Source: Acidobacteriota bacterium (GTDB taxonomy: Bacteria; Acidobacteriota; Terriglobia; Bryobacterales; Bryobacteraceae). Taken from it: DNA of 64,000 bases. The notes beneath the pieces were generated by a model. That model saw only the letters and a program-made list of their open reading frames with translations, did no database searches and had not been told where the DNA came from. The position numbers and the translations under genes were made by a program. The DNA is taken from positions 1 to 64,000 of the forward strand of contig JAFKEE010000018.1 of the NCBI GenBank assembly GCA_017307505.1, written 5' to 3'. This document shows, piece after piece, positions 6,942 to 52,583 of this stretch (within the stretch, counting starts at the first letter, position 1; each line of letters begins with the position of its first letter).

Positions 6942-6981
6942 AGCGGGCAAGTCGGCGTATGAATAGATCGGAAGGAGACCG

Positions 6982-7110
6982 ATGACAACCGTTAATGATT
7001 CCCAGCTCGAGTTCCGAATACACGAACTGCACTGTGGCGAAGAGGTGGCCATTCTCAAACGCGAGTTTGGACACCTCGTCGAAGTGGGCCAAACTCTGGC
7101 CACGTACTGA
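6982..7110 (+). CDS. 42-residue HMA-like micro-gene, truncated duplicate of the ATPase N-terminus
   Basis: An ATG at 6982 with a strong ribosome binding site (GAAGGAG, 6971-6977) opens a 42-codon frame ending TGA at 7108-7110. Its product contains LEFRIHELHCGEEVAILKRE, closely matching LHFRIHGMDCAEEVAILKRE at the start of the ATPase 26 bases downstream. The DNA of the two stretches is also similar, so this is a partial tandem duplication of the metal-binding domain. It keeps a Cys and the following Glu pair but lacks the rest of the HMA fold. It may be a decaying duplicate or a translated leader peptide. Confidence 0.65.
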   Translation: MTTVNDSQLEFRIHELHCGEEVAILKREFGHLVEVGQTLATY

Positions 7111-7135
7111 TGGCTTGAAAGGAGACCTCCCGGCA

Positions 7136-23105: not shown

Positions 23106-23109
23106 ATCG

Positions 23110-23295
23110 TTACCTCGCTTGATGTGAATGTTGATTCACTTCACGGCCAAAAAATTTTGCTCCTGCTAAGAAGTGCCGCACGGGACCAGTCAAGTCTGTC
23201 CAGGCAAAAGGCATCTGGTAGTAGGCCTGCTCGGGGATAACCGATACCACCAGTTTCCCGCGTCTCGTTCTTGTGTTCAGCTTCTTGGCGTGCAT
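23110..23295 (-). CDS. Possible 61-residue small protein in the exporter promoter region
   Basis: Open frame from an ATG at 23295 with only a weak purine stretch upstream. The product has a basic N-terminus (KKLNTRTRRGK) and no recognised domain. It lies between two TetR operator copies and overlaps the downstream one, so it may be an accidental frame in a regulatory leader. Confidence 0.2.
   Translation of the reverse strand: MHAKKLNTRTRRGKLVVSVIPEQAYYQMPFAWTDLTGPVRHFLAGAKFFGREVNQHSHQAR
23123..23140. promoter_or_regulatory. TetR-type operator copy 1 (adaptor start)
   Basis: TGTGAAT-GTTG-ATTCACT, 7-base arms with a 4-base spacer and one mismatch. It lies 17 bases before the HlyD-adaptor ATG. 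Matches the copy that overlaps the start of the TetR gene. Confidence 0.7.
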
Positions 23296-23298
23296 CTC

Positions 23299-23316
23299 TG
23301 TGACTCTAGATTCACA
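23299..23316. promoter_or_regulatory. TetR-type operator copy 2
   Basis: TGTGACT-CTAG-ATTCACA in the interval between the TetR gene and the exporter operon, with the same arm and spacer lengths as copies 1 and 3. Confidence 0.7.
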
Positions 23317-23344
23317 TTATGGCAGTTGGTGACAGTTTAATTCT

Positions 23345-23358
23345 GTGACTGATGTCAC
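23345..23358. promoter_or_regulatory. GTGAC-N4-GTCAC palindrome
   Basis: GTGAC-TGAT-GTCAC, the same palindrome as at 44128, 50971 and 51592. It also resembles a half-matching TetR operator of this intergenic region (TGTGACT start), so its owner is ambiguous. Confidence 0.45.
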
Positions 23359-38795: not shown

Positions 38796-40889
38796 TCAAT
38801 CAGCATACAACCTGCCCGGACCTTCCAGCACAGAGGCTAGTGTCTCGGAATACCGGCCCAGTGTCCCCGACGTGAACAGAGTGTCGCGGGCGGATTGAAT
38901 GAGTTCAGGCCGCGACGCCAATCGGATCCTCCCGTTCGGCGATGCCGTCCGCGCCGCCCCACCGACGTCGAGGGCGGAAACCGCCACGTTATACCCGGGG
39001 ACCACCTTGCGAATCTCCTCGAAAACATCTGCCGGAGTCCAGGAGCCCAAGCGCACACCCATCTGCCTGGCAATCAACTCCAAGATCTCCAGATCCTGCT
39101 TCGTGCCCACGGTCCGCAAAGCTGTCTTCAGACGCTGCACCTCGCCGCACACGTTGGTCACGGTGCCGGTCTTTTCGTACGCCGAAGCCGCAGGCAGGAC
39201 CACATCGGCCGCCAGTGCTGTTTCCGTCAGAAACATCTCCTGCACGACGATGAAAGGATCCCTGGAGGCGAGCTTCCGGTGTCGCAAGGAGTTGGCCCCC
39301 ACCACCCACAGCACATCCAGATCGCACGCCTCCAGCATCTCAGGCAGCGCCATTCCCGGCATCAAGCCCGCTTCTGAAACAGGACGGTAGCCCGGCAGAA
39401 GGTCTGGCAGAAGGCCCATGTCCATGGCCCCCCTCGAATTCGAGTAGTCCACCAGACAAACGTACTTCACCGGAATGCCGAGGGAATCACCGAAGGCCAC
39501 CAGCTCTTTCACACGCTCGCCTTTTATTGCGTCGCCGAAAAGGACGACAAGTTCCGTCTCTGCTGTCAATTGGTCGCGGAGACCGTTGAGCCCGCGAAGT
39601 TCTTCGCCCTCGCTGGTGCGGACAGCGCGAACAGCATAGTTGTCCTCGCGCACTGGACCACATGTGACGGCATAAATATGACACCCGTGGTGGCGCCAGT
39701 TTGCGCGGATCTGAAATGAGAGAAACGAATGCTGTTGCGCCAGGTCGTTGCCCACCACAAGGATGGCCTTGGCACTGTAAAGATCCGCCGTGGTTGCGAG
39801 GGCGCTGGGTCTTCCGCTCAGGGCGTCCAGCAGGCTTACGAGGTCACCGGTCCGGTGATGGTCGATATTGTTGGTGCCCAGCACCTCTCGCGCGAATCTC
39901 TGAAGACAGTAATTCTCCTCGTTCGTGGTTCGCGTTGAGCCAACAACCCCAAACTTGCCGTAGCGGGATTTCACATCTTCAAACCTCGTGGCCACTGCCG
40001 CCAGGGCTGTCGACCACGAGACTGGCTCTAGTCGGCCGTCGATGCGCATTAGTGGCGACTGAAGCCGCTCGGGGTGGTGGTTGAAATCGCAGCCGTAGCG
40101 TCCCTTGATGCACAGAAACTTGCCGTTGACACCGGAGGCGTCCCGGTTGTCGCCACGCATGATCCTGCCGTTCCGGACGCCGAGGGTGGTCTTGCAGCCG
40201 TCTGAGCAGTGCGTGCAGATGGTGCCAACCTGATTCATCTCCCAGGGACGCGTCTTGTAACGGTACATTCCGCTGGTAAGCGCTCCGACCGGGCAGATGT
40301 CAATGCACATGCCACATTCGTCGCAGTGTAGGTAGTCAATCTCGTTGGGGATTATCTTCGTTGGGCAGGCGCGGTCGGCGACGCCGAGCGCACGCACGCC
40401 CATTCCTTCATCGCAGATGCGCACACAGCGGTAACACAAAATGCAGCGGGGCCTATCGTAGTAGACAACTGGCGACCACTGAAGCTCGTCGAAGTGCTGC
40501 TTGAACTCGTCGAATCGTCCTTCGCCCACTCCATAGCGAAAAGTGGCATCCTGGAGCTCGCATTCACCGCCCTTGTCGCAGACCGGGCAATCCATGGGGT
40601 GGTTCGTCAAGACGAATTCCAGCATCGCCTTGCGGGCCTGCGCTACTTGCGGCGTGTCGGTCCGTACCACCATGCCCTCAGCCACCGGTAGGGTACATGC
40701 CGTCATGAGCTTAGGAAACTTATCCACCTCTACCAGGCACATCCGGCAGGCGCCTTGGAGCGACAGGCCTTCGTAGTAGCAAAAAGAGGGGATCTCGATG
40801 CCAGCGCTCTTGGCCGCCTCGATTATCAAGGTCCCCGCCGGAACTTCCAGCGGCCTGCCGTCGATCGTGAGTTTCACGTGTGGGGCCAT
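38796..40889 (-). CDS. NADH-quinone oxidoreductase subunit G-like iron-sulfur protein (orphan)
   Basis: 697 residues. An N-terminal [2Fe-2S] ferredoxin domain (Cys in SFCYYEGLSLQGACRMC) is followed by the His-Cys [4Fe-4S] motif HPMDCPVCDKGGECELQD. Two ferredoxin clusters (CILCYRCVRIC, CDECGMCIDICPVGAL) and a molybdopterin-family N-terminal [4Fe-4S] site (CTHCSDGCKTTLGV) come next, and then a molybdopterin-oxidoreductase-like domain. No other nuo genes are nearby. The ATG at 40889 is set by homology. It is the last gene after E1, PPOX and hemerythrin genes, so it might partner with another NADH or formate module. Confidence 0.85.
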   Translation of the reverse strand: MAPHVKLTIDGRPLEVPAGTLIIEAAKSAGIEIPSFCYYEGLSLQGACRMCLVEVDKFPKLMTACTLPVAEGMVVRTDTPQVAQARKAMLEFVLTNHPMDCPVCDKGGECELQDATFRYGVGEGRFDEFKQHFDELQWSPVVYYDRPRCILCYRCVRICDEGMGVRALGVADRACPTKIIPNEIDYLHCDECGMCIDICPVGALTSGMYRYKTRPWEMNQVGTICTHCSDGCKTTLGVRNGRIMRGDNRDASGVNGKFLCIKGRYGCDFNHHPERLQSPLMRIDGRLEPVSWSTALAAVATRFEDVKSRYGKFGVVGSTRTTNEENYCLQRFAREVLGTNNIDHHRTGDLVSLLDALSGRPSALATTADLYSAKAILVVGNDLAQQHSFLSFQIRANWRHHGCHIYAVTCGPVREDNYAVRAVRTSEGEELRGLNGLRDQLTAETELVVLFGDAIKGERVKELVAFGDSLGIPVKYVCLVDYSNSRGAMDMGLLPDLLPGYRPVSEAGLMPGMALPEMLEACDLDVLWVVGANSLRHRKLASRDPFIVVQEMFLTETALAADVVLPAASAYEKTGTVTNVCGEVQRLKTALRTVGTKQDLEILELIARQMGVRLGSWTPADVFEEIRKVVPGYNVAVSALDVGGAARTASPNGRIRLASRPELIQSARDTLFTSGTLGRYSETLASVLEGPGRLYAD

Positions 40890-40920
40890 AATATCCACCC
40901 ATCGGCGTCGACGCCGTGTG

Positions 40921-41487
40921 TCAGGACCGTGAGCCCAGAACCGACGCCAACCGTTCCGCCATCTGTTCGAACCGGTGATGTACGTCGTGCCCGACCGACA
41001 GCTCAACCGCTTGGAATCTCTCGCACAAATCCGTCTGGTCGTCCCGGCTCAGGACCTTGTTGGCCATGGGGAACAGCAGGTAGTCTTCCTTCCAGATGTG
41101 GCCGGGATATAGAGCGACGAGCCCACGCAAGCTGCTGATGACCGCATCTCTCTTGGAATCATCACCACCTGCGAATTGGTTTACGGCTTCGGTGAACGCC
41201 GCCACCAGTGCTCTTCCTGCTTTGTGCTCCTGGAGCAATGCCCCCACAGGGCACCCGCGGGAAGGCACACCTTTCTGTTCGAGCGCAGGGAATAAATGAG
41301 TCTCTTCCTTGCCGTGGTGGCATTGGTCGGCGTAGGTTCTCATGAAAGCCGCCACGTCGCGCAATGTGTCGACTTCGACATGGCCTCCCTGGTCCAGCGT
41401 TTCGGCAATCACTGCCATCGCGCCAACAACTTTCTCGATGACACGATGCTCCTCTTCCAGGATCTCTGTCGGCGTCTTTTCGGTCAT
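40921..41487 (-). CDS. Hemerythrin-domain di-iron protein
   Basis: 188 residues with the HHE four-helix pattern: EEHRVIEKVV, HHGKEETHLFPALEQ, LLQEHKAG and HIWKEDYLLFPMANK provide His/Glu ligands for a di-iron site. Such proteins bind or sense oxygen or nitric oxide. It lies 31 bases before the NuoG-like gene in the same operon. It is one of four hemerythrin-type proteins in 13 kb. Confidence 0.9.
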   Translation of the reverse strand: MTEKTPTEILEEEHRVIEKVVGAMAVIAETLDQGGHVEVDTLRDVAAFMRTYADQCHHGKEETHLFPALEQKGVPSRGCPVGALLQEHKAGRALVAAFTEAVNQFAGGDDSKRDAVISSLRGLVALYPGHIWKEDYLLFPMANKVLSRDDQTDLCERFQAVELSVGHDVHHRFEQMAERLASVLGSRS

Positions 41488-41588
41488 TTCGCCTCCTTAC
41501 TGATGATTCACTTCGGTCCAAGGCTCAACCTCTTGCAGCAGCGCATGCCGAAAACGCCCAACCCGGCGAACTGTCTGAGTCCATCACC

Positions 41589-41975
41589 TCAGAGCTGAAG
41601 CCTCGTCTTTTGCACGTGAACTACCAGAGCCGCACGCGCCCACGGGAATTTCGCTCTGACGGCGTCAAAACGCGGTCCCGATGTCTGAAGCTCGGCGTCG
41701 CCCGCAATGCAGCAACCTCGCCCCGGCTTCCCCTGAGAGCCTAGCACCTGACGCGTGCCACAGAGCAACTCGACACGATTGTCACGCGTCAGATTCGCCT
41801 CCGTTCTGTGCATGCCGCCCACGGGAATTGTGAGCGTCTCATCCTCGACGCCCACCGCACGGACGTAGTCGCCCCAGGTGGCTACAATATGGGGGCCTTC
41901 CGGTCCGGTCGTGGCGATTGCAATCCACTCCGTCTTGTCGATTACTTCCCGGCACACCCCTTCGATCTTCGCCAC
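41589..41975 (-). CDS. Pyridoxamine-5'-phosphate-oxidase-like flavin protein
   Basis: 128 residues with a split-barrel FMN-binding fold: TEWIAIATTGPEGPHIVATWGDYV, strands around ETLTIPVGGMHRTEANL and GRGCCIAGDAEL. Length and pattern fit single-domain PPOX proteins of unspecified substrate. It sits between E1 and hemerythrin genes. Confidence 0.75.
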   Translation of the reverse strand: MAKIEGVCREVIDKTEWIAIATTGPEGPHIVATWGDYVRAVGVEDETLTIPVGGMHRTEANLTRDNRVELLCGTRQVLGSQGKPGRGCCIAGDAELQTSGPRFDAVRAKFPWARAALVVHVQKTRLQL

Positions 41976-42041
41976 GGTTCAATCAACCTCCTTTTTAACT
42001 CGAAAATGAGCTCTCCCCTGCTCGGGGAATTGCCGGCGGCC

Positions 42042-44078
42042 TCAGAACGCCAGGGCCTTTTGCACTCCGGATCGGAGGCTGGCGATCGAGGGGAGAACGG
42101 CAAGCTCGAGGTTCGGGGCAGATGGCACAAAGGTATCCTTGGCCGCCACACGCACCACGGGACCATCCAAAGAACCGATACAATTCTCGGCGATGCGCGC
42201 CGCCACCTCGGCGCCAAAGCCGGCCGTGAGCGTGTCTTCGTGTGCGACCACGACCCTGTTGGTCTTACGGACGCTCCTGTAAATGAGTTCCTCGTCCAAA
42301 GGCACGATGGAGCGCAGATCGATGACCTCGATGAGCACGCCCTCCTTGGCCATCTGGCGCGCCAAGTCGAGCGCCATGTAGACCGTGCTGCCCCAGGTGA
42401 TCAAAGTCAGGTCCTTGCCCTCACACCGGATGGCCGCACTCCCGAAAGGCACGACGTAGCTGGCATCGGGTTCCGGCGTCTTGGCCTGGACGCGCCGATA
42501 CAGGCCCTTGTGTTCGAGAAAAACGACTGGGTCGTGGGACCGCGCGGCAGCTTTGATCAACCCCTTGGCGTCTTCCGCGCAACTGGGGTACACCACATAC
42601 CAGCCCGGGATGTGAGCGAAGAACGTTTCCACGTTTGCCGAGTGCCAGGGGCCTCCTTTGATGTAACCGCCGACGGCGATCCGGACCACCACGGGGCACT
42701 CCCATTGTCCTTGGCTGCGCCAGCGGACGGTCGGAATCTCGTCGCGGAGCTGCAACGCCGCGGGCCACAGATAATCGCCGAACTGCATCTCGACGATCGG
42801 CTTGTAGCCGGCGATCGCCATGCCGGCGGCGACGCCTGCAATGCTGGCTTCCGCCAGAGGCGAATTGTCCACGCGTCCGGGGAACGCGGTGCTCAATCCC
42901 CGCGTGACGCCAAACACGCCCCCCTTCGGATCGGCAATGTCTTCACCCCACATAACGATTTTCGGATTGCGCTCCATTTCTTCACGCAAACCGTGGTTGA
43001 TCGCATCGATCATCGTGACCGGATCGCCCGACAGATAATTGGGACTCACGACGGCTTCACTGGGCGAATCGTGGCTTCCTGCGTAGATGTGGGCCAGCAG
43101 GGTCGCTTCATCCGGAGCGGGATAGCTGTCCGCCTCGTCGGCGGCGCGGTCTACATCGGCCTTGATTTCCGCGCGTAGCGAAGCAATCTCGGCCTCGGTG
43201 AGAACTGAATTCCGCAGCAGGTATCGCTCGGTTTGGAGAACCGGATCACGCTCGGCGATGACCTCCAAGTCGCTTTCCGTGCGGTATTTGCGATGGTCAT
43301 CGGAAGAGGAGTGGGGGTCAAGGCGCACGACCTTGGCCTCGACCAGCGCCGGCCCGCTACCGTGCCGCATAGCCTCGATTACGGGCGGCAGCGTCTCGTA
43401 AAGGTGCTCGAACCACGTCCCGTCAAGCTGGAACGTAGGCATGCCGAAGCCATGGGCGATCCGGTGGATTTCGGAGCTGGTTTGACTGGCCTGCGGTACG
43501 CTGATTGCGTATCCGTTATTCTGCACATTGAACAGCACCGGCAACTTCTCGCGAGATGCCCAATTCAGCGCTTCGAAGAACTCGCCTTCGCTGGTAGCAC
43601 CCTCGCCTGAAGCAACATGCACGATTTCGTCTCCGCCGTTCATTTTCACGGCGCGCGCCATCCCTACCGCATTCAGATACTGCGTGCCTGTCACTGCCGT
43701 CTGCGCGACCAGCCGGAGCTTGCGCGAAGACCACTGCTCGGGCATGTTGCGTCCGTTGGAGTTCGGGTCTCCTTCCCGGCCCAACATGCCGAGGAAGATA
43801 TCCTTGATAGGCATTCCAAGGCCGACGGCGAGCGCTTTCGAACGGTAGTAGGGGAAGAACCAGTCGTGCCCCGGCTTCAGCAGCAATGTCATGCCGATCT
43901 GGAGCTTTTCGTGACCGCGAGTCGAAGCCTGGAATCCGCACTTGCCCTGCCGCACAAACGCCTTCATCCGTTCTTCGATATAGAAGACAGTGAGCATCTT
44001 GCGGTATAGATCCATCGTCACCGGATGCGGAACGATAATCTGGTCCGTGCTTTGTGAATTCAGGACCGGAGATGTCAT
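42042..44078 (-). CDS. Fused alpha-beta E1 of a branched-chain 2-oxoacid (or related) dehydrogenase
   Basis: 678 residues. The alpha part (about 1-330) contains RGHEKLQIGMTLLLKPGHDW and a thiamine-diphosphate motif VASGEGATSEGEF...NNGYAIS, with GEG instead of GDG. The beta part (about 345-678) contains MWGEDIADPKGGVFGVTRGL and EMQFGDYLWPA. It decarboxylates a 2-oxoacid and passes the acyl group to a lipoyl E2, which is not in this window. The ATG at 44078 follows GAGGGGGG. A GTGAC-N4-GTCAC palindrome lies 50-63 bases upstream. Confidence 0.92.
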   Translation of the reverse strand: MTSPVLNSQSTDQIIVPHPVTMDLYRKMLTVFYIEERMKAFVRQGKCGFQASTRGHEKLQIGMTLLLKPGHDWFFPYYRSKALAVGLGMPIKDIFLGMLGREGDPNSNGRNMPEQWSSRKLRLVAQTAVTGTQYLNAVGMARAVKMNGGDEIVHVASGEGATSEGEFFEALNWASREKLPVLFNVQNNGYAISVPQASQTSSEIHRIAHGFGMPTFQLDGTWFEHLYETLPPVIEAMRHGSGPALVEAKVVRLDPHSSSDDHRKYRTESDLEVIAERDPVLQTERYLLRNSVLTEAEIASLRAEIKADVDRAADEADSYPAPDEATLLAHIYAGSHDSPSEAVVSPNYLSGDPVTMIDAINHGLREEMERNPKIVMWGEDIADPKGGVFGVTRGLSTAFPGRVDNSPLAEASIAGVAAGMAIAGYKPIVEMQFGDYLWPAALQLRDEIPTVRWRSQGQWECPVVVRIAVGGYIKGGPWHSANVETFFAHIPGWYVVYPSCAEDAKGLIKAAARSHDPVVFLEHKGLYRRVQAKTPEPDASYVVPFGSAAIRCEGKDLTLITWGSTVYMALDLARQMAKEGVLIEVIDLRSIVPLDEELIYRSVRKTNRVVVAHEDTLTAGFGAEVAARIAENCIGSLDGPVVRVAAKDTFVPSAPNLELAVLPSIASLRSGVQKALAF

Positions 44079-44127: not shown

Positions 44128-44141
44128 GTGACAGGAGTCAC
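44128..44141. promoter_or_regulatory. GTGAC-N4-GTCAC palindrome before the E1 gene
   Basis: Perfect palindromic arms GTGAC-AGGA-GTCAC, centre 56 bases before the E1 ATG. Arm length and 4-base spacer are those of CRP/FNR-family (FNR, DNR, NnrR) sites. Identical arms occur at 50971 and 51592. Confidence 0.7.
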
Positions 44142-44163
44142 GTGCGGCCGTGTGCGATTTGAA

Positions 44164-45480
44164 TCAGGCCGGGCCGCTGCCGGTCTTGGGCAGACTCCTC
44201 AGGTGCGGAGGGACCTGCCCGAAGGTGACAATCAGATTGATCGCAAACAGCGTCATCGCCGTTATCTCGAATACCGCGGAGACCGGTAGCACTGGCCACA
44301 ACGCGGGCAGGTAGCCCTCATAGGCGCCGATCTCGCTCCCGACGCGAAGCAGGCAACCAATGTTCAGCAGTGCAAGGGCCACGAACATCAGAGCGGGGCT
44401 GAAGAGAACACGCATGCCGCAGAACGCGGGCAGCACCCTCTGGCCAACTGCAAAGACCATCGTCGATATGAATCCCACCGTTAGTGCATGACGGGACGCT
44501 CCCCACAGACCACCTGCTTTGTCCCAGCCTGCCGCGCTCAGCGACACGCAGGCCGATATGAGCAACCAGACGTACGCAATACGGACAAACAACGGAAAAC
44601 TCGGGTGCACGCCGACTACCTTCGGTGGCCGGTTCGGGTGGGCGAAGATCCGCAACCCCGCCGAAGCGGTTGCGGCGGCAAGCGCAAACAGCATCGTCGC
44701 CGGAATCCACCACGCGCCGACCGCGCACGCAACGGCGGAGGTATTGATGACCAGCGCGATTCGCAGCAGGAGGCCATTGGGGTTGGCGATACCGAGAAAG
44801 ACGGGCAACCACCGAGCGCTAAAGCCCCAAATGGTGACGACCGGGAAGGCCCACGTGAACAGCGCAAGCAGGCGCTGATCCAAATCGGATGCAACAGCTG
44901 GGTTGGCACCGAAGAAGGACGCTTGCAGTGCGGTGGCAAAGTTTGCCAACAAGCTCAGCAGGAATCCGAGCGTACCTGCAACGACGATTCCTATCCAGAC
45001 CTGCGATCCGGCAGCGCCGCTTTCGCCAGGATTCTTTTCGCTTCGATGCCCGCGAACCGTGATGAAGAACAGGAGGAACCCGGCCAGTTCCAGAACCGCG
45101 GAGACGGGCAACATCCAGCGCCATTGCCACTGCCACAGGTTCGTTGCCCACCGCAGCCCCACGCCCGACGTCCACAGCGCCCAACTCGCCCAGGATCGAG
45201 TGACGGCAAAGCGCGCCAGCCCGCGCATCTTGGAAAGCGAATAGAAGCCGATCCCCAGTATGAAAGTGCCGATCCAGCCGAAGATCTGGGCGTGACCATG
45301 CGCTTGAATCCAGGCCGGGTCCAGATGCGCGGCGCCGCGTTGATCTGATATCGCGATCAGGTTCCACGCTCCGAGAAGCGTTCCTGGCAAGAGCATGAAC
45401 AGGAGTCCTGTCACAATCCAGACCGTCACTGAACCTTGCAGCGCTGCCTCATGTTGTTTGATGGCCTCGATGTCGCCCAT
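44164..45480 (-). CDS. NnrS-like multi-helix membrane protein
   Basis: 438 residues with about 12 helices. An N-terminal segment DPAWIQAHGHAQIFGWIGTFILGIGFYSL carries paired His of the kind found in NnrS and heme-copper-oxidase-like proteins. A later helix has WGASRHALTVGFISTMVFAVGQRVLP. NnrS proteins protect against nitric oxide and may bind haem. The ATG at 45480 follows GGGGGAGAA; an overlapping ATG lies at 45498. It is the last gene of the cytochrome/FG-GAP operon. Haem-copper oxidase-like descent is the alternative reading. Confidence 0.75.
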   Translation of the reverse strand: MGDIEAIKQHEAALQGSVTVWIVTGLLFMLLPGTLLGAWNLIAISDQRGAAHLDPAWIQAHGHAQIFGWIGTFILGIGFYSLSKMRGLARFAVTRSWASWALWTSGVGLRWATNLWQWQWRWMLPVSAVLELAGFLLFFITVRGHRSEKNPGESGAAGSQVWIGIVVAGTLGFLLSLLANFATALQASFFGANPAVASDLDQRLLALFTWAFPVVTIWGFSARWLPVFLGIANPNGLLLRIALVINTSAVACAVGAWWIPATMLFALAAATASAGLRIFAHPNRPPKVVGVHPSFPLFVRIAYVWLLISACVSLSAAGWDKAGGLWGASRHALTVGFISTMVFAVGQRVLPAFCGMRVLFSPALMFVALALLNIGCLLRVGSEIGAYEGYLPALWPVLPVSAVFEITAMTLFAINLIVTFGQVPPHLRSLPKTGSGPA

Positions 45481-45497
45481 GGCGGGATTCTCCCCCA

Positions 45498-48128
45498 TCA
45501 GCGGAAACGGTGCAAGTAGCCGTCCAGCGGAGCATAAGCCCGGTCCGGCGCCGTGCTCCCATCCCACCCGTCGGCAAACACATTCAGAAAACCGGCTTCG
45601 TTGTACATTCTGCGCTTCACGTCGCCTTCGAGTACGGCACCGCGAGGTTTCCAGTCCGGCCCGAGTGCTTTCCTCGCGGCTGAGAGCATTGCGGCGGCCT
45701 CCCGTCCATCCCGCCGTTGCCATGCTATATAGCCTCGGAGAAACCAGGCGTTGGTGGCACGCGCGTTGGCCTGGCAGGCATGCGTGAGCCGTTGCTCCGC
45801 CGCCCCCGGATCACCCAACGCAAGCTCCACTTCACCGAGCAGCACCAAGGTTCCCGTCTCCTCGGAATTCAGCCGCAGCGCGACTTCGAGAGGCGCTCGA
45901 GCGGTCGCCAGCTGTGAGCGGGACGATGCCGATGACGCCAGTAACTCGCCTTTGCGTTGGAACGCCCGATGGCTCTGCGGGTTGACTTGCGTCAGCATAT
46001 CGAGTTCGGCGATAGCGCCGGCCGCGTCGCCCTGGGCCGTAAGGCAATTGGCCAGGTAGTAGAGCGAATCTTCGTGCCGCGGGTCGATGGCCAGCGCCTC
46101 CCGGAACAGTCCCGCCGCTTTGGCCGGATTCTGCTCGCGTTTCATGGCATCCATCGCCGCGCGTTGCTTCTCCCAGAACTTCGCGATCTGTTCCGGACCT
46201 GGCTGCAAATTGGGAACAAAGGGACGCGCTACGCGCTCGCCCTCGGTGATCTCCCAAATGCGATTCGCCGGCAGGTCCGTCCACGTCTCCGCGCGGCCCT
46301 TCAGCCATCGCACTTCCAGCCGGTCGACCTTCGCCGCCTCGCCCAGCCCGATGTGCACGCGGCGGCTGTCCTGCGACAAGTACGACGCGCTGGTAATGGT
46401 GCGCCGCAGAGGTACGCCGCCAGCCCAGGCGATCACCGTCGCTCCATCGCCGGACCCGAGTGCGGCGCGATTGCCCGGGACACGGCTGTGCAGGCGGAAC
46501 TCCACCCAGTTTCCGTGCGGCATGTCGTTGCTTAGCAGGCGCACTCCTTCTCCGTGGTCGACGATGGCGATGTCCATGGAGCCATCATTGTCGAAGTCCG
46601 CAACGGCCAGTCCGCGGCTGACATGCGACTGCGCGAGCGACCCGTTCCAGGGCGCCAGATCGTGAAAGAACCGGCCGCGCGCATTCCAGAACAGGAATGA
46701 CGGTATCGGAGCGAGACGTCGCGGCTGGGTGTCCTTCAGCTCGAACGTGCTGCCATTGGCGACTACCAGGTCCGGCCAGCCGTCGGAATCGAGATCCACG
46801 AAGCTGGTTCCCCAGCCGATGGATTGCATGGACGGCTGTCCGATCCCCATCATTTCGGCGACATCCGTAAAGTGCAACTCCCTCCGTGTGTCGTCCAGAT
46901 CCTTCTGCTCGGAGAGCAGAGACTGATACAGCGCGTATTGTTGCGCGATCCAGTGCGAGATGAATAGATCGTCGTCGCCGTCGCGATCGAAGTCGCCCGC
47001 CGCAAGGCCCATAGAACCGCGGTATTCCTCCACCCACGCGCTTCTGCCCGCGTCGACGAACTTCCCGCGCCGGTTCAAATACAGCTTGTTCTCGGAAATG
47101 TCATTGGCGACGTAGAGATCGAGCCACCCGTCCCCGTCGAAATCACGCCACAAAGCGCTCAGGCTGCGTCCTTCGGGGTTGGCGACACCCAACTCCCGCG
47201 CGACCTCGGTGAACGCGCCGTCGCTGTTGTTGCGGAACAGCAAGTTCCGTTCCGGCTCATACGACGCCGGGTTGAGCGTGAACGGGACCTCCTTGCCAAA
47301 CTGCTGCGTGGCGCTGGCTGCGTCGCCCTTGCCGGGCATGTACTTCACGTATCCGCAGACATACAGATCGAGGAACCCATCGCGGTTGTAGTCGCCCCAC
47401 GCCGCTCCGGACCAGAAGCCTTTCGGGGAAGGAAACCGGCGCTCACGCACGAAGTGGCCGTGATCGTTCCGGAATAGGAGGATCGTGTCGTATCCGGTCA
47501 CGACCAGGTCCAGCCAGCCGTCGTTGTTGTAGTCGCCCCAGGCGGCCGCCATGCCGCGAATCCGGGTTTCCGGAAAATCCTTCACCTCCTCGAAACGTCC
47601 GTTGCCGAGATTGCGATAGAGCTTGGAAGGGGCGAGCTGCGAATCCGGCAGGTTCAGCGCACCGCCGCCGGCGACCACGAACAGATCGTCATAGCCGTCG
47701 TTGTCGAAGTCGCCCCAGGCGAGCCCGGACCCCATATCTTCCGGCAACTGCGACGTTCGCGGCCCCTGGAACTGGCGGAATGCCGCGAGGCCCGCCGCCT
47801 GGGTCACGTCGGTGAAGCGAGGCGGTGGGGCGCCAGGCGGCAACTTGTGTCCAGGATCGAGAAGCGGGTCAACGACGCGCGAACTCACCTCGGTACGGGT
47901 GGGCGCGGCCGGAGCGGCCTTGCTGGCAGCGCGGTCGCTAACGGAACTGGTGATGTCGGCGGAAGCCTCCCCCGGCGCGTATTGTTCCGGCTCATTCTCT
48001 TTGTGAATGCGCCAGGCGACCAGGCCTCCGATCAGCACGAGCGCGCCCAGTGTCGAGGCGGTCCAGAGAATCCGCCGATGGCGACGTGAAATCGGCTTGC
48101 GTGGAGGCGCTGGGGCGGTAACCTGCAC
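45498..48128 (-). CDS. Membrane-anchored FG-GAP/UnbV (CRTAC1-type) protein with C-terminal TPRs
   Basis: 876 residues starting with GTG after GGGGGAG. One N-terminal helix (ILWTASTLGALVLIGGLVAW) anchors it outside the cytoplasm. Seven FG-GAP/VCBS calcium-loop repeats follow (DFDNDGYDDLFV, DYNNDGWLDLVV, DYNRDGFLDLYV, DFDGDGWLDLYV, DFDRDGDDDLFI, DLDSDGWPDLVV, DFDNDGSMDIAI), enough for a seven-bladed propeller. An ASPIC/UnbV domain (ITSASYLSQDSRRVHIGLG) and TPRs complete it. It follows the multiheme cytochrome by 4 bases, suggesting a periplasmic complex with it. Confidence 0.92.
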   Translation of the reverse strand: MQVTAPAPPRKPISRRHRRILWTASTLGALVLIGGLVAWRIHKENEPEQYAPGEASADITSSVSDRAASKAAPAAPTRTEVSSRVVDPLLDPGHKLPPGAPPPRFTDVTQAAGLAAFRQFQGPRTSQLPEDMGSGLAWGDFDNDGYDDLFVVAGGGALNLPDSQLAPSKLYRNLGNGRFEEVKDFPETRIRGMAAAWGDYNNDGWLDLVVTGYDTILLFRNDHGHFVRERRFPSPKGFWSGAAWGDYNRDGFLDLYVCGYVKYMPGKGDAASATQQFGKEVPFTLNPASYEPERNLLFRNNSDGAFTEVARELGVANPEGRSLSALWRDFDGDGWLDLYVANDISENKLYLNRRGKFVDAGRSAWVEEYRGSMGLAAGDFDRDGDDDLFISHWIAQQYALYQSLLSEQKDLDDTRRELHFTDVAEMMGIGQPSMQSIGWGTSFVDLDSDGWPDLVVANGSTFELKDTQPRRLAPIPSFLFWNARGRFFHDLAPWNGSLAQSHVSRGLAVADFDNDGSMDIAIVDHGEGVRLLSNDMPHGNWVEFRLHSRVPGNRAALGSGDGATVIAWAGGVPLRRTITSASYLSQDSRRVHIGLGEAAKVDRLEVRWLKGRAETWTDLPANRIWEITEGERVARPFVPNLQPGPEQIAKFWEKQRAAMDAMKREQNPAKAAGLFREALAIDPRHEDSLYYLANCLTAQGDAAGAIAELDMLTQVNPQSHRAFQRKGELLASSASSRSQLATARAPLEVALRLNSEETGTLVLLGEVELALGDPGAAEQRLTHACQANARATNAWFLRGYIAWQRRDGREAAAMLSAARKALGPDWKPRGAVLEGDVKRRMYNEAGFLNVFADGWDGSTAPDRAYAPLDGYLHRFR

Positions 48129-48132
48129 GATT

Positions 48133-50193
48133 TCACTCCCCCTTTCGCACCACGGAGATCTCGGCGGTGGCGCTCGCGATGTCTACGACTGGCGAGGTGA
48201 GGTGTGCCGCTTCGCCCATCACGTAGTTCAGCAGAAACTGGTCGATCTTGCGGTAGTGCAGTGTGGCTGCGATTCGCAGCGTCCCCGGTTTCAGCGCGCG
48301 GACCGAGAATTCCTGGACGTCCCCGTTCTTCCGCGCCTGAACTCGCGGCCCGCCCGACGGACACAGGACATTGTATTCGACCGTGTCCGAGTACCCGGGG
48401 AACAGGGAGCGGCGGTATCGCACACCGACCATTTCCCACAGGTTGTGGCGATCGATGAGGTTGCCGTACTGGTCTACGGGCTCCGCTTTGAACAGAAACG
48501 TGCCGGGCCGGAGGAAGTTGCGGTCGTCGCGCTCGCCCGAGGCGAAGACGGTCCGGCCTTGCTCGTCGTCAATATGCAATTCCACCCAGCTTTGGATCAT
48601 GTCCAGCGGTCCCGTGGGATAGTCGTGGCCCACTTTGTTGGAGATGAGCACGACACGCACGGGAACCTTCTCACCCGGCATCGCCGTGCGCGGAGCTTCG
48701 AGTCGCAGTCTGACTACGGGCCCTTCCGCCCACTTGTTCCGGATCTCCGGTATCTCCACCTGCCCATGCAACCAGCGTTCGGTCAGTTCCACGTGTTTCG
48801 CGGAGCCTTCCAAATGCAGAAGCCCGGGCACGAAGTTGTTGGCCGCCAGGAAGCGGTGGCTGCGGTGTTTGTGATCGCCCGGGCTCCGGTTGTAGTCCGT
48901 GGAATCGCCGGCGGCCGGATCGGTGGAGTCAACCAGAGGCATGTGGCACTCGCGGCACTCGACCGTGGCGCGGGCGTCGCCTTTCTTATTCCAGTGGCTT
49001 ACCGCCCAGTTGTCGTACTGGTTCTGCAATTGGACCCAGCCGACGCGGTTCACTTCCTGGTCGATGAACTGCTTGTGGCAGGCCGCGCAGTACTCCGGCT
49101 TCTTGTACATGCGCTTGCTGAGCCGGTTGTGCTGGGTTGGCCAGGTGCGAATCAGAAAATTGCGGGCCAACGCGCCGGCCGTGCCCGGTCCGCTCCATTG
49201 CCAAAGGTACTCGCCCAATTGTGTGATCGTGTAGTTCGCGTTCCCCTGAATGTCGGTCTTCTGGATCGAATGGCAGGCGACGCAGGAGATACCTTCGTTG
49301 TAGCCGTCGAGGCCGGTTAACTTCTCGACGAAGATATTCTTGGTTCCGGAGAACAGCGAGATAGGATCGTGACATCCGCCGCAGTAGCGCGTCGACTCCG
49401 CGCCGTTCTGCTTGGCCATGACGTTCTGGATGCCCTGGAAGATGGGATCCATGGCGGCATAGCGGTGCGCGCTGGGTTTCCACTCGTCGTAGATCTGCGT
49501 GTGGCAACCGCTGGAGCCGCAGGTGACCGACCCGGCCAGCGAGCGAGCGTCAAAGGCGCCATTCGTGGATGTGCGAGCGAGGCTCGGCGCAAACGGGCGA
49601 TGTTTGCCGTAGAGGAAGTTGTAATCGGGCGGAAACTCATTGCGGTACCTGATGCCCGAATAGGACAGCGTCAACCCGGCCGTAGCGCACACTCCCGCCA
49701 CGCAACCCAGCGCGGTCCACGCAAGCCACCCGGAGGCGGGTCGCGCGGTTTCAGTGTTTCGCCGGCGAATCCAGGAGATGACGATGTGGGGAACCGAAGC
49801 GGCGAGCGCCAGCAAAGTCGAGATGAGGTGGAGATAGCGGAGCCACAGAGCCGTATGTGTCGCGAGCAACCCCTGCCAGGTAACCGCGAACCCGGACAAG
49901 ATGCAGATCGCCAGGGCGGCCAGACCAACGTAGCCGAGCAAGAGCACGTCGGACATCGCCTGTCCGGCGTAGTCCTCCCAATGGCGAGCGAAGTACCAGG
50001 CGAGTGGCGCAATTGCGGCCAGCCCGATCGCGGTGTGCAGAAGCAAACCCCACTCGATCGCGGGGTGAAACGGGCCGAACGTGACCGCAAAGCCGGAGAC
50101 GAGCTCGAACAGAAGGACCGCCGCGGTCGCGCGAGCCAGGATAGAGGACCATCCTGTGTGGAAAGAGCGAATGGAATTGTCCGGTGCTGCCAT
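48133..50193 (-). CDS. Fusion of a cytochrome-b561-like membrane module with a multiheme cytochrome c
   Basis: About 686 residues. The first 190 residues form five to six helices with His pairs (LLHTAIGLAAIAPLAWYFARHW, HTALWLRYLHLISTLLALAASVPH), like quinol-oxidising b-type modules. The periplasmic part has five c-haem motifs: CGSSGCH (CX4CH), CGGCH, CVACH, CAACH, CRECH. A beta-rich C-terminal domain carries GHDYPTG, common in soil-bacterial multiheme cytochromes. It could move electrons from quinol to a periplasmic acceptor. Start candidates are 50217 (GTG), 50202 and 50193. Substrate unknown; nitrogen oxides are suggested only by neighbours. Confidence 0.88.
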   Translation of the reverse strand: MAAPDNSIRSFHTGWSSILARATAAVLLFELVSGFAVTFGPFHPAIEWGLLLHTAIGLAAIAPLAWYFARHWEDYAGQAMSDVLLLGYVGLAALAICILSGFAVTWQGLLATHTALWLRYLHLISTLLALAASVPHIVISWIRRRNTETARPASGWLAWTALGCVAGVCATAGLTLSYSGIRYRNEFPPDYNFLYGKHRPFAPSLARTSTNGAFDARSLAGSVTCGSSGCHTQIYDEWKPSAHRYAAMDPIFQGIQNVMAKQNGAESTRYCGGCHDPISLFSGTKNIFVEKLTGLDGYNEGISCVACHSIQKTDIQGNANYTITQLGEYLWQWSGPGTAGALARNFLIRTWPTQHNRLSKRMYKKPEYCAACHKQFIDQEVNRVGWVQLQNQYDNWAVSHWNKKGDARATVECRECHMPLVDSTDPAAGDSTDYNRSPGDHKHRSHRFLAANNFVPGLLHLEGSAKHVELTERWLHGQVEIPEIRNKWAEGPVVRLRLEAPRTAMPGEKVPVRVVLISNKVGHDYPTGPLDMIQSWVELHIDDEQGRTVFASGERDDRNFLRPGTFLFKAEPVDQYGNLIDRHNLWEMVGVRYRRSLFPGYSDTVEYNVLCPSGGPRVQARKNGDVQEFSVRALKPGTLRIAATLHYRKIDQFLLNYVMGEAAHLTSPVVDIASATAEISVVRKGE

Positions 50194-50198
50194 GTCTC

Positions 50199-50915
50199 TC
50201 ATATCCCCAAGCGGCACGCGTTCTCAACGCGCGCCTCGATACTGTCCAGGATCTGTACCAGCATGTTCTCACTCGCCCCGCAGTGGTCAGCGCCGGCCAG
50301 GATCTGTTCGGGAGTCTGCTCGTACGGGCCGGAGCCGATATTGCTCGAACACTCGCGGATCAGGCCGGCCAGTCCTTCGGGAGTCACTTCCAGGTGAAAT
50401 TGCAGACCCAGCGCGTAGGGATGCTCGAATGCTTGAACACGACAGCCTGTACTGCTGGCCAGGTGGGCGGTTCCCGGTGGGAGATCGTACGTCTCTCCGT
50501 GCCAATGAAACCCGGTGAAGCGCGGGGGCAAACTGCGAAACAGATGACTGGCGCTTTCCCCCATGCACTGGGCCAGCGGAAACCAACCGATCTCCTTGAA
50601 CTGATTCCGGTACACCCTGGCGCCGAGCACTTCCGCCAGAAGTTGCGATCCCAAACAGACGCCGAGCACGAACTTGCCGGCCGCCAGGCACCGCGCGATC
50701 AGTCTCTTTTCCGCGACGAGCCAAGGATGCGCGGCCTCATCGTGGACGCTCATCGGTCCACCCATTACCACCAGCAGGTCGAAGTCCGTGACGCACGGCA
50801 GGCGCCCGTCCAGGTATGGCCGCGCGAACGTGAACTCATGGTCGCGCACGGCTGCCCAAGCAGCGATGTGACCGGGGCCTTCAAAGGGCACATGTTGCAG
50901 GCAGCATACATTCAT
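50199..50915 (-). CDS. Class I glutamine amidotransferase-like protein
   Basis: 238 residues with the GATase-1 fold: oxyanion/leading motif LLVVMGGPMSVHDE, nucleophile elbow VLGVCLGSQLLAE (Cys) and the catalytic His in LGLQFHLEV with Glu two residues on. It resembles GMP-synthase-like stand-alone amidotransferases (YfeJ/GuaA-N type). The ATG at 50915 is set by homology. It is the first gene of the cytochrome operon, and its link to haem or redox chemistry is unclear. Confidence 0.88.
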   Translation of the reverse strand: MNVCCLQHVPFEGPGHIAAWAAVRDHEFTFARPYLDGRLPCVTDFDLLVVMGGPMSVHDEAAHPWLVAEKRLIARCLAAGKFVLGVCLGSQLLAEVLGARVYRNQFKEIGWFPLAQCMGESASHLFRSLPPRFTGFHWHGETYDLPPGTAHLASSTGCRVQAFEHPYALGLQFHLEVTPEGLAGLIRECSSNIGSGPYEQTPEQILAGADHCGASENMLVQILDSIEARVENACRLGI

Positions 50916-50970
50916 GGCGGTCCAGCGCCCCTTCCCCGATGACGATACGGCTTTTGCGGCGGCGAAGGAT

Positions 50971-50984
50971 GTGACTAAAGTCAC
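50971..50984. promoter_or_regulatory. GTGAC-N4-GTCAC palindrome in a divergent promoter
   Basis: GTGAC-TAAA-GTCAC lies between the GATase/cytochrome operon (start 50915, minus) and the hemerythrin gene (start 51035, plus). It is about 57-63 bases from both starts, so one site could control both directions. Confidence 0.75.
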
Positions 50985-51034
50985 CGTCGCGGGACGTTAT
51001 CTGCCGGAGAATAATACGTGGCGAGGAGTGCATC

Positions 51035-51595
51035 GTGCCTGTCGTAATCGGAGCCAAGCGTGAGAGCGGTTTTCGAGACCCCATCGGCCTTTTGACGGAT
51101 TGTCACCGCCGGGTGGAGAAGTTTCTTTCGGTGCTTGTGCAGGTGATCGCACAAGCGAAGGGCGGCCCTCCGAGCGCCGAACAACGCACCGCCTTAGACA
51201 CTGCTCTGCGCTACTTCCGCGAGGCGGCGCCGAAACATACCGCCGACGAAGAGGAGTCGTTGTTTCCGCGCCTCAGGACGGTGGGCGGTCCGGAACTGTG
51301 CGCGGTGCTCGATCGTGTGACTGCGTTGGAGCAGGATCACGTGGAGGCGGAGAAGCGTCACGCGGGAGTAGACCGGTTGGGGCAGGCGTGGTTGACGGAC
51401 GAGATGCTTCCTCCAGCCGAGGCAGCCCGGTTCTCGGAACTCGTCTCCGAGTTGACGGACCTGTACCGGGTACACATAGCCATGGAAGAACGCGAAGTAT
51501 TCCCTGCCGCGGCAGCAGCGCTCGGCCACGCTGAACGTGAGGCGGTAGGAATCGAGATGGCCGCAAGACGTGGGTTGTCGGCGGTCCAATCGTGA
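51035..51595 (+). CDS. Hemerythrin-domain di-iron protein
   Basis: 186 residues with four HHE helices: LLTDCHRRVEKFL, KHTADEEESLFPRL, LEQDHVEAEKRHAG and YRVHIAMEEREVFP. All expected iron-ligand positions are present. GTG start after GAGGAG. It is a close structural parallel of the hemerythrin at 53166-53606 (EHSATEEETVFP, YERHIRLEESDVFP). A palindromic site lies upstream and another overlaps its stop codon. Confidence 0.9.
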   Translation: MPVVIGAKRESGFRDPIGLLTDCHRRVEKFLSVLVQVIAQAKGGPPSAEQRTALDTALRYFREAAPKHTADEEESLFPRLRTVGGPELCAVLDRVTALEQDHVEAEKRHAGVDRLGQAWLTDEMLPPAEAARFSELVSELTDLYRVHIAMEEREVFPAAAAALGHAEREAVGIEMAARRGLSAVQS

Positions 51596-51605
51596 CTTCA
51601 GTCAC
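51592..51605. promoter_or_regulatory. GTGAC-N4-GTCAC palindrome before the RIC gene
   Basis: GTGAC-TTCA-GTCAC overlaps the hemerythrin stop codon, with its centre about 52 bases before the RIC start. Same arms as at 44128 and 50971. Confidence 0.72.
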
Positions 51606-51650
51606 TGCACGCCAGGGCCGCAACGCGTAGCCTACCAGTAAGGAGCAATC

Positions 51651-52376
51651 ATGCCAATCGAGTCTGGTGTCACCGTTGCCGAAATCGCGGCGAGTTCACT
51701 GCCCGCTGTGAGGGTGTTTGAGCGTCTGGGTATTGATTACTGCTGCGGCGGAAAACGCCCACTGGGGGACGTATGCCGCGAGAAAGGCCTGGATGCGGAC
51801 GCCGTTCAGCGCGAGTTGGACGCCGCCGCTAGCGCCCGTGAGAGCACCGACCGCGACTGGAAGACAGCGCCCTTGCACGAGCTGGTCGATCATATCGTCA
51901 GCACGCATCACCAGTACCTCAAGCGCGAGTTTCAGCCGCTGGCCGACCGGCTGGAGAAGGTCTACCGCGTTTACAATGAGCGCTACGGCCCGACCCTCAC
52001 CGGTCTGCCGGAAGTGTACTCCGAGCTCCGGTCAGAACTGGAGATGCACATGTTCAAGGAGGAAAGAATCCTGTTCCCCGCGATTGTAGCCGCCGAGTCG
52101 GCGGCGTCGTGTGGCGCGCCGCTTCCTAGAACACCGTTTGGTCCCTTCGCCAATCCGATCGGGATGATGCAGGCCGAACACGATAGTGCAGGGCAGGCGC
52201 TCGCCCGGATTCGCACCATCACTGGCAACTTCGCGATTCCCGATTATGCCTGCGTAACCTACCGCGCGCTGATGAGCGGGCTGCAGGAACTGGAGCAGGA
52301 CCTGCATCTGCATATACACCTTGAAAACAACATCCTCTTTCCGCGCGCGACTGAACTGGAGCGTTCACGGACGTAG
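51651..52376 (+). CDS. Iron-sulfur cluster repair di-iron protein (RIC; ScdA/YtfE)
   Basis: 241 residues. The N-terminal ScdA_N/DUF542 domain contains the diagnostic LGIDYCCGGKRPL. The hemerythrin part provides HELVDHIVSTHHQYLKREF, EMHMFKEERILFP, MMQAEHDSAG and HIHLENNILFPRA. RIC proteins repair Fe-S clusters after nitric-oxide or oxidative damage. AAGGAG precedes the ATG. It is followed after 9 bases by a Cys-rich peptide gene. Confidence 0.95.
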   Translation: MPIESGVTVAEIAASSLPAVRVFERLGIDYCCGGKRPLGDVCREKGLDADAVQRELDAAASARESTDRDWKTAPLHELVDHIVSTHHQYLKREFQPLADRLEKVYRVYNERYGPTLTGLPEVYSELRSELEMHMFKEERILFPAIVAAESAASCGAPLPRTPFGPFANPIGMMQAEHDSAGQALARIRTITGNFAIPDYACVTYRALMSGLQELEQDLHLHIHLENNILFPRATELERSRT

Positions 52377-52385
52377 GGGAGGACA

Positions 52386-52583
52386 ATGGGCAGTTGGGGT
52401 TGTCCGCATGAGATAGACGGCGCCTGCCAGAAGGTGAACAAGCTCCCCTGCGACCCGGGCATGAGGGGATGCGTCCTCCACGGCCGGTTTGTCTTCAGTA
52501 ATCCGGCCAAGAACCGGCCGTCCAAACCTGACGCCCGAATGAAGGCCCAAGAAAAGGGCGGCCAGCCTCGATCGTCGAAATGA
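52386..52583 (+). CDS. Small Cys-rich protein next to RIC
   Basis: 65 residues. Conserved-looking Cys spacing CPHEIDGACQKVNKLPCDPGM then GCVLHGRFVF, four Cys in all, and a basic tail. GGGGAGGA lies upstream. The Cys set could bind iron, zinc or a cluster. No named family is recognised. Coupling with RIC suggests a role in NO stress or cluster repair. Confidence 0.65.
   Translation: MGSWGCPHEIDGACQKVNKLPCDPGMRGCVLHGRFVFSNPAKNRPSKPDARMKAQEKGGQPRSSK

What the first reader, a model, noticed from the sequence alone, without database searches (positions are those of the whole stretch)
44128..51605. Shared GTGAC-N4-GTCAC palindrome marks a redox/NO regulon
Three perfect copies (44128, 50971, 51592) sit with their centres about 52-63 bases before the starts of four units: E1-PPOX-hemerythrin-NuoG, GATase-cytochrome-FG-GAP-NnrS, hemerythrin, and RIC-Cys-rich peptide. 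Constant distance fits class II activation by a CRP/FNR-type factor at about -41. A fourth copy (23345) is in the exporter region. No CRP/FNR gene is in the window.
Basis: partly seen in the sequence, partly recalled or inferred. Interest (0 to 1): 0.8.

Follow-up and report, generated by a model that had tools for sequence, protein, structure and literature searches.

The report
Nitric-oxide gene switch in Acidobacteriota
A short mirror-image DNA sequence in this soil bacterium sits at the spot where an activator protein can switch on genes for handling nitric oxide and nitrite, and a likely activator gene was found elsewhere in the same genome.

Summary
GTGAC-N4-GTCAC occurs 4 times exactly in the window (shuffles: mean 0.07), with centres 56, 62, 57 and 52 bases before E1, GATase, hemerythrin and RIC. 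Of 16 genome sites, 6 lie deep inside long ORFs and 10 at gene boundaries. Six of the ten face RIC (twice), hemerythrins, an NnrS unit, NrfHA or a NarK/nitrate-reductase pair; the other four face the E1 unit, a radical SAM gene, a NapH-like gene and an exporter. In relatives the site precedes RIC in 24 of 30 loci, best of 1,024 palindromic half-sites (next 6; reversed pattern 0). TANNNT sits 22-23 bases after the site in 33 of 78 gene-facing sites, about 1 expected: class II geometry. The likely regulator is a CRP/FNR protein on contig C52: conserved R-E-x-x-S-R helix, a site beside its gene, and co-occurrence with RIC (28 of 30 genomes with it, 3 of 31 without). It is neither cAMP- nor FNR-type by sequence. 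The regulon resembles HcpR/DNR regulons but lacks hcp (0 of 37 genomes). Binding, activation and NO as signal are inferred.

The parts
44128..44141 (-). Activator site GTGACTCCTGTCAC for the E1-PPOX-hemerythrin-NuoG unit; -10 TATCCT 22 bases downstream (44105-44100)
   Evidence: E1 orthologue upstream sites
42045..44078 (-). E1: fused alpha/beta 2-oxoacid dehydrogenase E1 (E1_dh, Transket_pyr, Transketolase_C); ATG 56 bases from site centre
41592..41975 (-). PPOX-type flavoprotein (PNPOx_N), start uncertain
   Evidence: (weak)
40924..41487 (-). Hemerythrin (PF01814)
38799..41006 (-). NuoG-like molybdopterin/Fe-S protein, start uncertain
50971..50984 (.). Activator site GTGACTAAAGTCAC between divergent units; minus side has -10 TATCGT at offset 23 (50947-50942); plus side only GAGAAT at 22
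50202..50915 (-). Class-I glutamine amidotransferase, first gene of the GATase-cytochrome-FG-GAP-NnrS unit; ATG 62 from site centre
48136..50217 (-). Multihaem cytochrome c-like protein (weak Pfam matches), start uncertain
45501..48128 (-). FG-GAP/ASPIC-UnbV/TPR protein
44167..45723 (-). NnrS family protein (PF05940, just over its cut-off), start uncertain
51035..51592 (+). Hemerythrin (PF01814); GTG start 57 from site centre
51592..51605 (+). Activator site GTGACTTCAGTCAC for RIC; -10 TAGCCT 22 bases downstream (51628-51633); overlaps the stop codon of the hemerythrin gene
51651..52373 (+). RIC (ScdA_N + hemerythrin), di-iron repair protein
52386..52583 (+). 65-aa Cys-rich peptide after RIC; a homologue in relative G020 has its own exact site 56 bases upstream
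23345..23358 (-). Fourth exact copy; CATAAT at offset 23 on the minus strand, but the facing HlyD/ABC exporter gene starts 246 bases away: uncertain member

Best explanation
GTGAC-N4-GTCAC is the operator of a CRP/FNR-family activator encoded outside the window (genome contig C52, 5852-6571 minus). It binds as a dimer centred near -41.5, next to RNA polymerase (class II), and switches on genes that detoxify or reduce nitrogen oxides and repair iron centres: RIC, hemerythrins, NnrS, NrfHA, NarK/nitrate reductase, NO reductase in some relatives, and an E1-PPOX-NuoG unit. Shown by computation: the site, its conservation, its promoter phasing, its target genes, and the co-occurrence and recognition helix of the regulator. 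Inferred: that this protein binds the site, that it activates, and that NO (or nitrite made from nitrate) is the signal.
For: Enrichment in the window. 10 of 16 genome sites at gene boundaries, 6 of 16 deep inside ORFs of 381-1209 aa; targets. RIC upstream site with at most 1 mismatch in 24 of 30 loci, reversed pattern 0 of 30, other spacers (0-3, 5-10) 0 or 1 of 30, GTGAC first among 1,024 half-sites with the next at 6. TANNNT at offsets 22/23 in 33 of 78 gene-facing sites, 1.0 expected. Around regulator relatives in 80 named loci: 37 sites in 29 loci, reversed 0, other spacers from 0 to 12 at 0-2 each. Regulator: cNMP_binding + HTH_Crp_2; R201, E202, S205, R206 invariant in 18 orthologues, and in 32 others the R, E, R are invariant and the S nearly so; the published rule R180-G3, E181-A6 (PMC1274295, passages) predicts a GTGA half-site. 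Co-occurrence with RIC: 28 of 30 genomes with the orthologue, 3 of 31 without (counted by hand; orthologue means E below 1e-30, weakest accepted 2.1e-37, best rejected 1.8e-21). E1 orthologues of 61% identity or more: site in 6 of 12 genomes with the regulator (5, plus G016), 0 of 12 without. NorB (PF22085) faced by the site in G028 and in a Terriglobia contig.
Against: No binding, expression or ligand data. Raw genome counts are not decisive: spacer 7 gives 19 in the own genome; genomes without the regulator still show 184 forward against 117 reversed, those with it 256 against 105. In the 80 regulator loci a GC-rich half-site, CGCCG, is commoner than GTGAC (58 against 37). 6 of 30 RIC loci count as lacking a site within 300 bases (one of them, L089, begins at a contig end, and the script read a wrong stretch there). 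G001 and G002 have RIC sites but no orthologue found (assemblies 78% and 84% complete); G031 has 16 sites without orthologue or RIC; in G008, also without an orthologue, a site with TATTCT at 22/23 faces a porin gene. In the own genome no site with up to 2 mismatches and promoter geometry faces the regulator gene. 45 of 78 gene-facing sites lack TANNNT at 22/23.
Confidence: 0.86

Rival explanations
1. Same operator and activator, but the signal is low oxygen or general redox state, and NO genes are only part of an anaerobic regulon. (This differs from the best explanation only in the signal, so the two odds overlap.)
For: NrfHA, NarK-like/nitrate-reductase-like genes, a NapH-like Fe-S protein (below the NCBIfam cut-off) and a NuoG-like protein are also anaerobic-respiration genes.
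Against: No FNR-type N-terminal cysteine cluster: in A3 only two Cys columns are conserved, at alignment columns 71 and 140. Targets in relatives include RIC, NnrS, hemerythrins and NorB.
Confidence: 0.2
2. The palindrome is read by another factor, for instance the second CRP/FNR protein of the genome (contig C6) or an Rrf2/NsrR-type protein.
For: C6 encodes a CRP/FNR protein over the family cut-off. An Rrf2-like ORF (my reading) lies near the C52 regulator, and an Rrf2 gene is itself faced by a site in G035. G031 and G008 have sites without a C52 orthologue.
Against: The C6 helix reads TRETVST, lacking the last Arg of R-E-x-x-x-R. The C74 and C24 matches are an IclR/LacI-like and a GntR-like protein by my reading. 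Sites cluster beside C52 relatives, and in L059, L259 and L262 a site lies 35-41 bases before the regulator gene itself, though without TANNNT at 22/23. GTGA halves in this register fit a CRP-type helix.
Confidence: 0.08
3. Chance or codon-driven palindromes with no regulatory role.
For: The own-genome count with spacer 4 (16) is no higher than with spacer 7 (19); 6 of 16 sites are intragenic.
Against: Promoter phasing 33 of 78 against 1.0 expected; RIC conservation 24 of 30 against 0 of 30 for the reversed pattern; spacer dependence near regulators 37 against 0-2.
Confidence: 0.01

Closest known systems
HcpR1 of Desulfovibrio (TGTGA-N6-TCACA; PMC5701242 and PMC1274295, passages read)
   Same: CRP/FNR protein with R180/E181-type helix and GTGA half-sites in the same register; HcpR regulons in various bacteria also take in hcp plus nrfHA, nar or nap, ferredoxin-, hemerythrin- and cytochrome-like genes.
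   Different: No hcp gene in 37 genomes searched; RIC is the best conserved target found here; an extra C/G pair extends each half-site, and the outer T is not fixed.
DNR of Pseudomonas (PDB 3dkw)
   Same: NO-linked CRP/FNR activator (recalled, and PMC12750200 passages); profile match E 6.1e-36, stronger than HcpR of P. gingivalis 9day, E 9.6e-20.
   Different: DNR boxes are TTGAT-type (recalled); here the half-site is GTGAC. cAMP-type CRPs of actinobacteria score higher than DNR (best E 1.6e-42).
Class II CRP-dependent promoters (recalled)
   Same: Site centred near -41.5 with a -10 element 22-23 bases after the site.
   Different: The cAMP-contacting Arg of CRP is replaced: the profile has y-P where M. 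tuberculosis CRP has R-T (alignment).

Membership tests
CRP/FNR superfamily activator | cNMP-binding-like domain plus HTH_Crp | tested here: met
   PF00027 E 1.2e-22, PF13545 E 3.8e-18; AlphaFold model of the Bryobacterales orthologue in L197, pLDDT 85.7, matches CRP-family chains
CRP/FNR superfamily activator | Recognition helix R-E-x-x-(S/G)-R matching GTGA half-sites | tested here: met
   R201 E202 S205 R206 invariant in 18 sequences of A1; rule from PMC1274295
Class II activated promoter | Operator centre near -41.5 with fixed spacing to -10 | tested here: met
   TANNNT at offset 22 (23 sites) or 23 (10 sites) of 78, at most 2 at any other offset from 12 to 35; transcript starts not mapped
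HcpR regulon | hcp as main target | tested here: not met
   TIGR01703: 0 of 37 genomes including the own; control search rang in 5 of 14 known genomes
HcpR (P. gingivalis type) | Met68/His149 proposed haem ligands | tested here: not met
   Only one Met or His column reaches 60% in A3, column 204 (His, 29 of 32), in the HTH region; position-by-position alignment with 9day not made; ligands from PMC12750200 passages
HcpR1 | Same clade as Desulfovibrio HcpR1 | not tested
   No HcpR1 sequence was at hand
DNR | Haem binding and NO response | not testable with these tools
   Needs protein
FNR | N-terminal [4Fe-4S] cysteine cluster | tested here: not met
   Only alignment columns 71 and 140 hold conserved Cys in 32 orthologues
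cAMP-type CRP | Arg/Ser of the phosphate-binding cassette | tested here: not met
   y-P in the profile where M. tuberculosis CRP has R-T (alignment)

The most novel reading that the evidence does not exclude
A widespread NO switch of Acidobacteriota with a sensor unlike HcpR, DNR or CooA: two cysteines invariant in 32 of 32 orthologues and no conserved His or Met in the sensor domain suggest thiol-based (or haem-thiolate) sensing. It would also control an E1/NuoG-like unit as an NO-tolerant route for 2-oxoacid electrons.
Probability: 0.2. Interest if true: 0.65.

Novelty: new variant of a known kind. Interest (0 to 1): 0.48.

Why it matters
Acidobacteriota are among the commonest soil bacteria (recalled). 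I saw no described NO regulon for them in the capped listings of seven library searches (the library lacks most subscription journals) nor in the passages of the genome survey PMC5900883 (0 occurrences of 'regulon'). This work gives a candidate regulator, its operator, its promoter geometry and a target list that can be tested at once. It also ties several genes of unclear role (the E1-PPOX-NuoG unit, a Cys-rich peptide, a GATase-FG-GAP unit, cupins, TIGR04053 radical SAM proteins) to nitrogen-oxide stress or nitrite reduction.

Tried and rejected
Raw counting as proof: dropped after spacer 7 gave 19 sites in the own genome. The C6 CRP/FNR protein as reader of the site: disfavoured by its helix. 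C74 and C24 HTH_Crp_2 matches: not CRP proteins by my reading. HcpR membership: rejected for lack of hcp. An asymmetric -35 remnant: in RIC sites the second base after the operator is G in 24 of 27, but over 78 gene-facing sites it is 52 against 42 on the mirror side, so it is only suggestive. Sites around the own regulator gene with up to 2 mismatches: only the radical-SAM site has promoter geometry. My gene filter (ATG 33-100 bases away, 60 aa or more, a ribosome-site-like stretch, little open frame upstream) dropped 246 of 324 unique oriented sites, among them some true ones such as GTG starts; that group also shows the 22/23 peak (19 and 13, with 6 at offset 28). The 78 retained sites are not independent: same-genus orthologues are included. 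In one search the C70 site is also covered by a 405-aa antisense ORF and the C52:63076 site by the end of a 174-aa ORF; I took the first for a shadow, because the facing gene has strong Fer4 matches, and the second for an overlap at a gene end.

Full report
What is there. The window lies on contig C49 of a 9.39 Mb genome. Regulator relatives in named records are mostly labelled Bryobacterales, Bryobacteraceae, Solibacter-type or unspecified Acidobacteria/Terriglobia, one Paludibaculum, so the host is probably an acidobacterium of that group (inference). GTGAC-N4-GTCAC occurs exactly at 23345, 44128, 50971 and 51592, against 0.07 expected from shuffles.

Genome-wide list. There are 16 exact sites. 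Six lie deep inside ORFs of 381-1209 aa (contigs C3, C17, C23, C33, C47, C66). The other ten lie at gene boundaries (the C70 and C52:63076 sites need a judgement on overlapping ORFs, see Tried and rejected). Besides the four in the window, these precede: a second RIC (C15); a NarK-like transporter followed by a molybdopterin nitrate-reductase-like protein, both under their NCBIfam cut-offs (C15); the divergent pair NrfH-NrfA and an alginate-export-type porin (C32); a TIGR04053 radical SAM protein, over its cut-off, beside the regulator gene (C52:5633); a hemerythrin (C52:63076); and a NapH-like Fe-S protein after a gene that I read as nuoH (C70) (Pfam and NCBIfam). Six of the ten thus face clear NO, nitrite, nitrate or hemerythrin genes; the E1 unit, the radical SAM, the NapH-like and the exporter sites are less clear.

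Promoter geometry. Reading each site towards its gene, -10-like hexamers start 22 or 23 bases after the site: TATCCT (E1), TATCGT (GATase), TAGCCT (RIC), TAAATT (NrfH and radical SAM), TAGCCT (porin). The C15, C52:63076 and C70 sites and the plus side of 50971 have poorer hexamers. Over all loci fetched by then, 33 of 78 unique gene-facing sites have TANNNT at these two offsets against 1.0 expected, and other offsets from 12 to 35 have 0-2. With -10 starting at -12, this puts the operator centre at -41.5 to -42.5, the class II position. In the window, with up to 2 mismatches allowed, the only sites with this geometry are three directions of the perfect copies.

Conservation. Upstream of RIC, 24 of 30 loci (one per genome; 31 of 61 genomes had a match, second copies not examined) hold the site with at most one mismatch, 16 of them exact by my count. 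The reversed pattern is found in 0 of 30 and other spacers in 0-1 of 30, and GTGAC ranks first of 1,024 palindromic half-sites (24; next 6). E1 serves as a control, because close orthologues also exist in genomes without the regulator: 5 of 12 with it have the site, and a sixth (G016, whose match begins inside the gene) has an exact site 60 bases before the E1 N-terminus; 0 of 12 without it do. Six more distant rows, none with a site, are left out of these counts.

Regulator. HTH_Crp_2 gives four matches in the genome. By sequence two are CRP/FNR proteins (C52, C6) and two are other regulators. The C52 protein has a cNMP-like domain and HTH_Crp. Its helix GTVREVVSRN is little changed in orthologues, and the four DNA-contact positions R, E, S, R are invariant in 18 (helices of 29 shown). 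Rodionov and others (PMC1274295, passages) reported that R180 goes with G3 and E181 with A6 of the half-site, which predicts GTGA here. Regulator orthologue and RIC match co-occur: 28 genomes have both, 2 only the regulator (G024, G034), 3 only RIC (G001, G002, G058), 28 neither (my count, orthologue meaning E below 1e-30; the G036 RIC match covers only the hemerythrin part). In G016, G030 and G060 the regulator lies directly before RIC with the site between. Around 80 regulator loci from named genomes (some of them the same contigs as in the G set, and two assemblies giving two loci each), GTGAC-N4-GTCAC occurs 37 times in 29 loci, its reverse 0 times, and other spacers from 0 to 12 at 0-2 times each; among all half-sites with spacer 4, GC-rich CGCCG is commoner (58). 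In L059, L259 and L262 a site lies 35-41 bases before the regulator gene itself, without the usual -10 spacing.

What it controls. Over relatives the site faces RIC, hemerythrins, a DUF438-hemerythrin-PAS protein, NnrS, NrfHA, porins, NapH-like proteins, cupin, a 4Fe-4S ferredoxin, an Rrf2 protein, DUF6448, and NO reductase NorB in G028 (L115) and a Terriglobia contig (L260). This list points to NO and nitrite. P. stutzeri ric is under DnrD control (PMC9268430, passages), a known parallel.

Signal. No FNR-type cysteine cluster and no cAMP-contacting Arg were found. The profile is nearer to DNR (3dkw, E 6.1e-36) than to P. gingivalis HcpR (9day, E 9.6e-20), but nearest to cAMP-type CRPs of actinobacteria (E 1.6e-42), so this ranking does not settle the ligand. 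The model of the L197 orthologue (pLDDT 85.7, pTM 0.61) matches CRP-family chains (in this structural list HcpR 9day_B ranks 18th and DNR 33rd). Two cysteines are invariant in 32 of 32 orthologues, and no His or Met column outside the HTH region reaches 60%; in the most divergent row of A1 (L061) both cysteines are missing. Haem or thiol sensing of NO is therefore open.

Against. Whole-genome counts alone discriminate poorly (256 to 105 with the regulator, 184 to 117 without). G031 has 16 sites without regulator or RIC, and G008 has a well-spaced site before a porin gene without a regulator orthologue. The plus direction of 50971 and the 23345 copy lack good geometry or a near gene.

Prior work. 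HcpR, DNR and NnrR regulons are known. 'Acidobacter' has 0 occurrences in the main texts of PMC1274295, PMC8510549 and PMC2908626. PMC5900883, a survey of 24 acidobacterial genomes (passages), reports nrfHA and NO reductase genes but holds no 'regulon' or 'Crp'. The capped listings of seven searches showed no acidobacterial NO regulon. Hence: new variant of a known kind.

Noticed in passing
window 38799-44078 minus: A fused E1 2-oxoacid dehydrogenase with PPOX, hemerythrin and a NuoG-like protein in one unit behind the site; G007 and G020 have close E1 copies (95% and 85%) with the site as well (G007 with one mismatch).
   Followed up: partly
window 52386-52583 plus; L157 2064-2246: A 65-aa peptide with a conserved GCPHE..G.CQKVN.LPCDPGM.GCVL pattern; in G020 a 65% identical copy has its own exact site 56 bases upstream.
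   Followed up: partly
L027 about 6540-6776 and 6775-7115 plus: A ferredoxin-like and a cupin-like ORF (my reading) run divergently from the C52 regulator gene; no site with promoter geometry was found there in the own genome, while a cupin gene in G035 and a cupin-like ORF in G020 (my reading) have their own sites.
   Followed up: partly
alignment A3 columns 71 and 140: Two cysteines invariant in 32 of 32 regulator orthologues, with no conserved Met or His outside the HTH region.
   Followed up: no
genomes G031 and G008: G031 has 16 exact sites against 4 reversed, yet neither the regulator orthologue nor RIC was found; G008 (88% complete) has a well-spaced site before a porin gene without a regulator orthologue.
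   Followed up: no
window 18904-23358 minus: HlyD-type protein, two ABC ATPases and an ABC-2 permease; the fourth site lies 246 bases before the HlyD start with CATAAT at offset 23, which would imply a long leader.
   Followed up: partly
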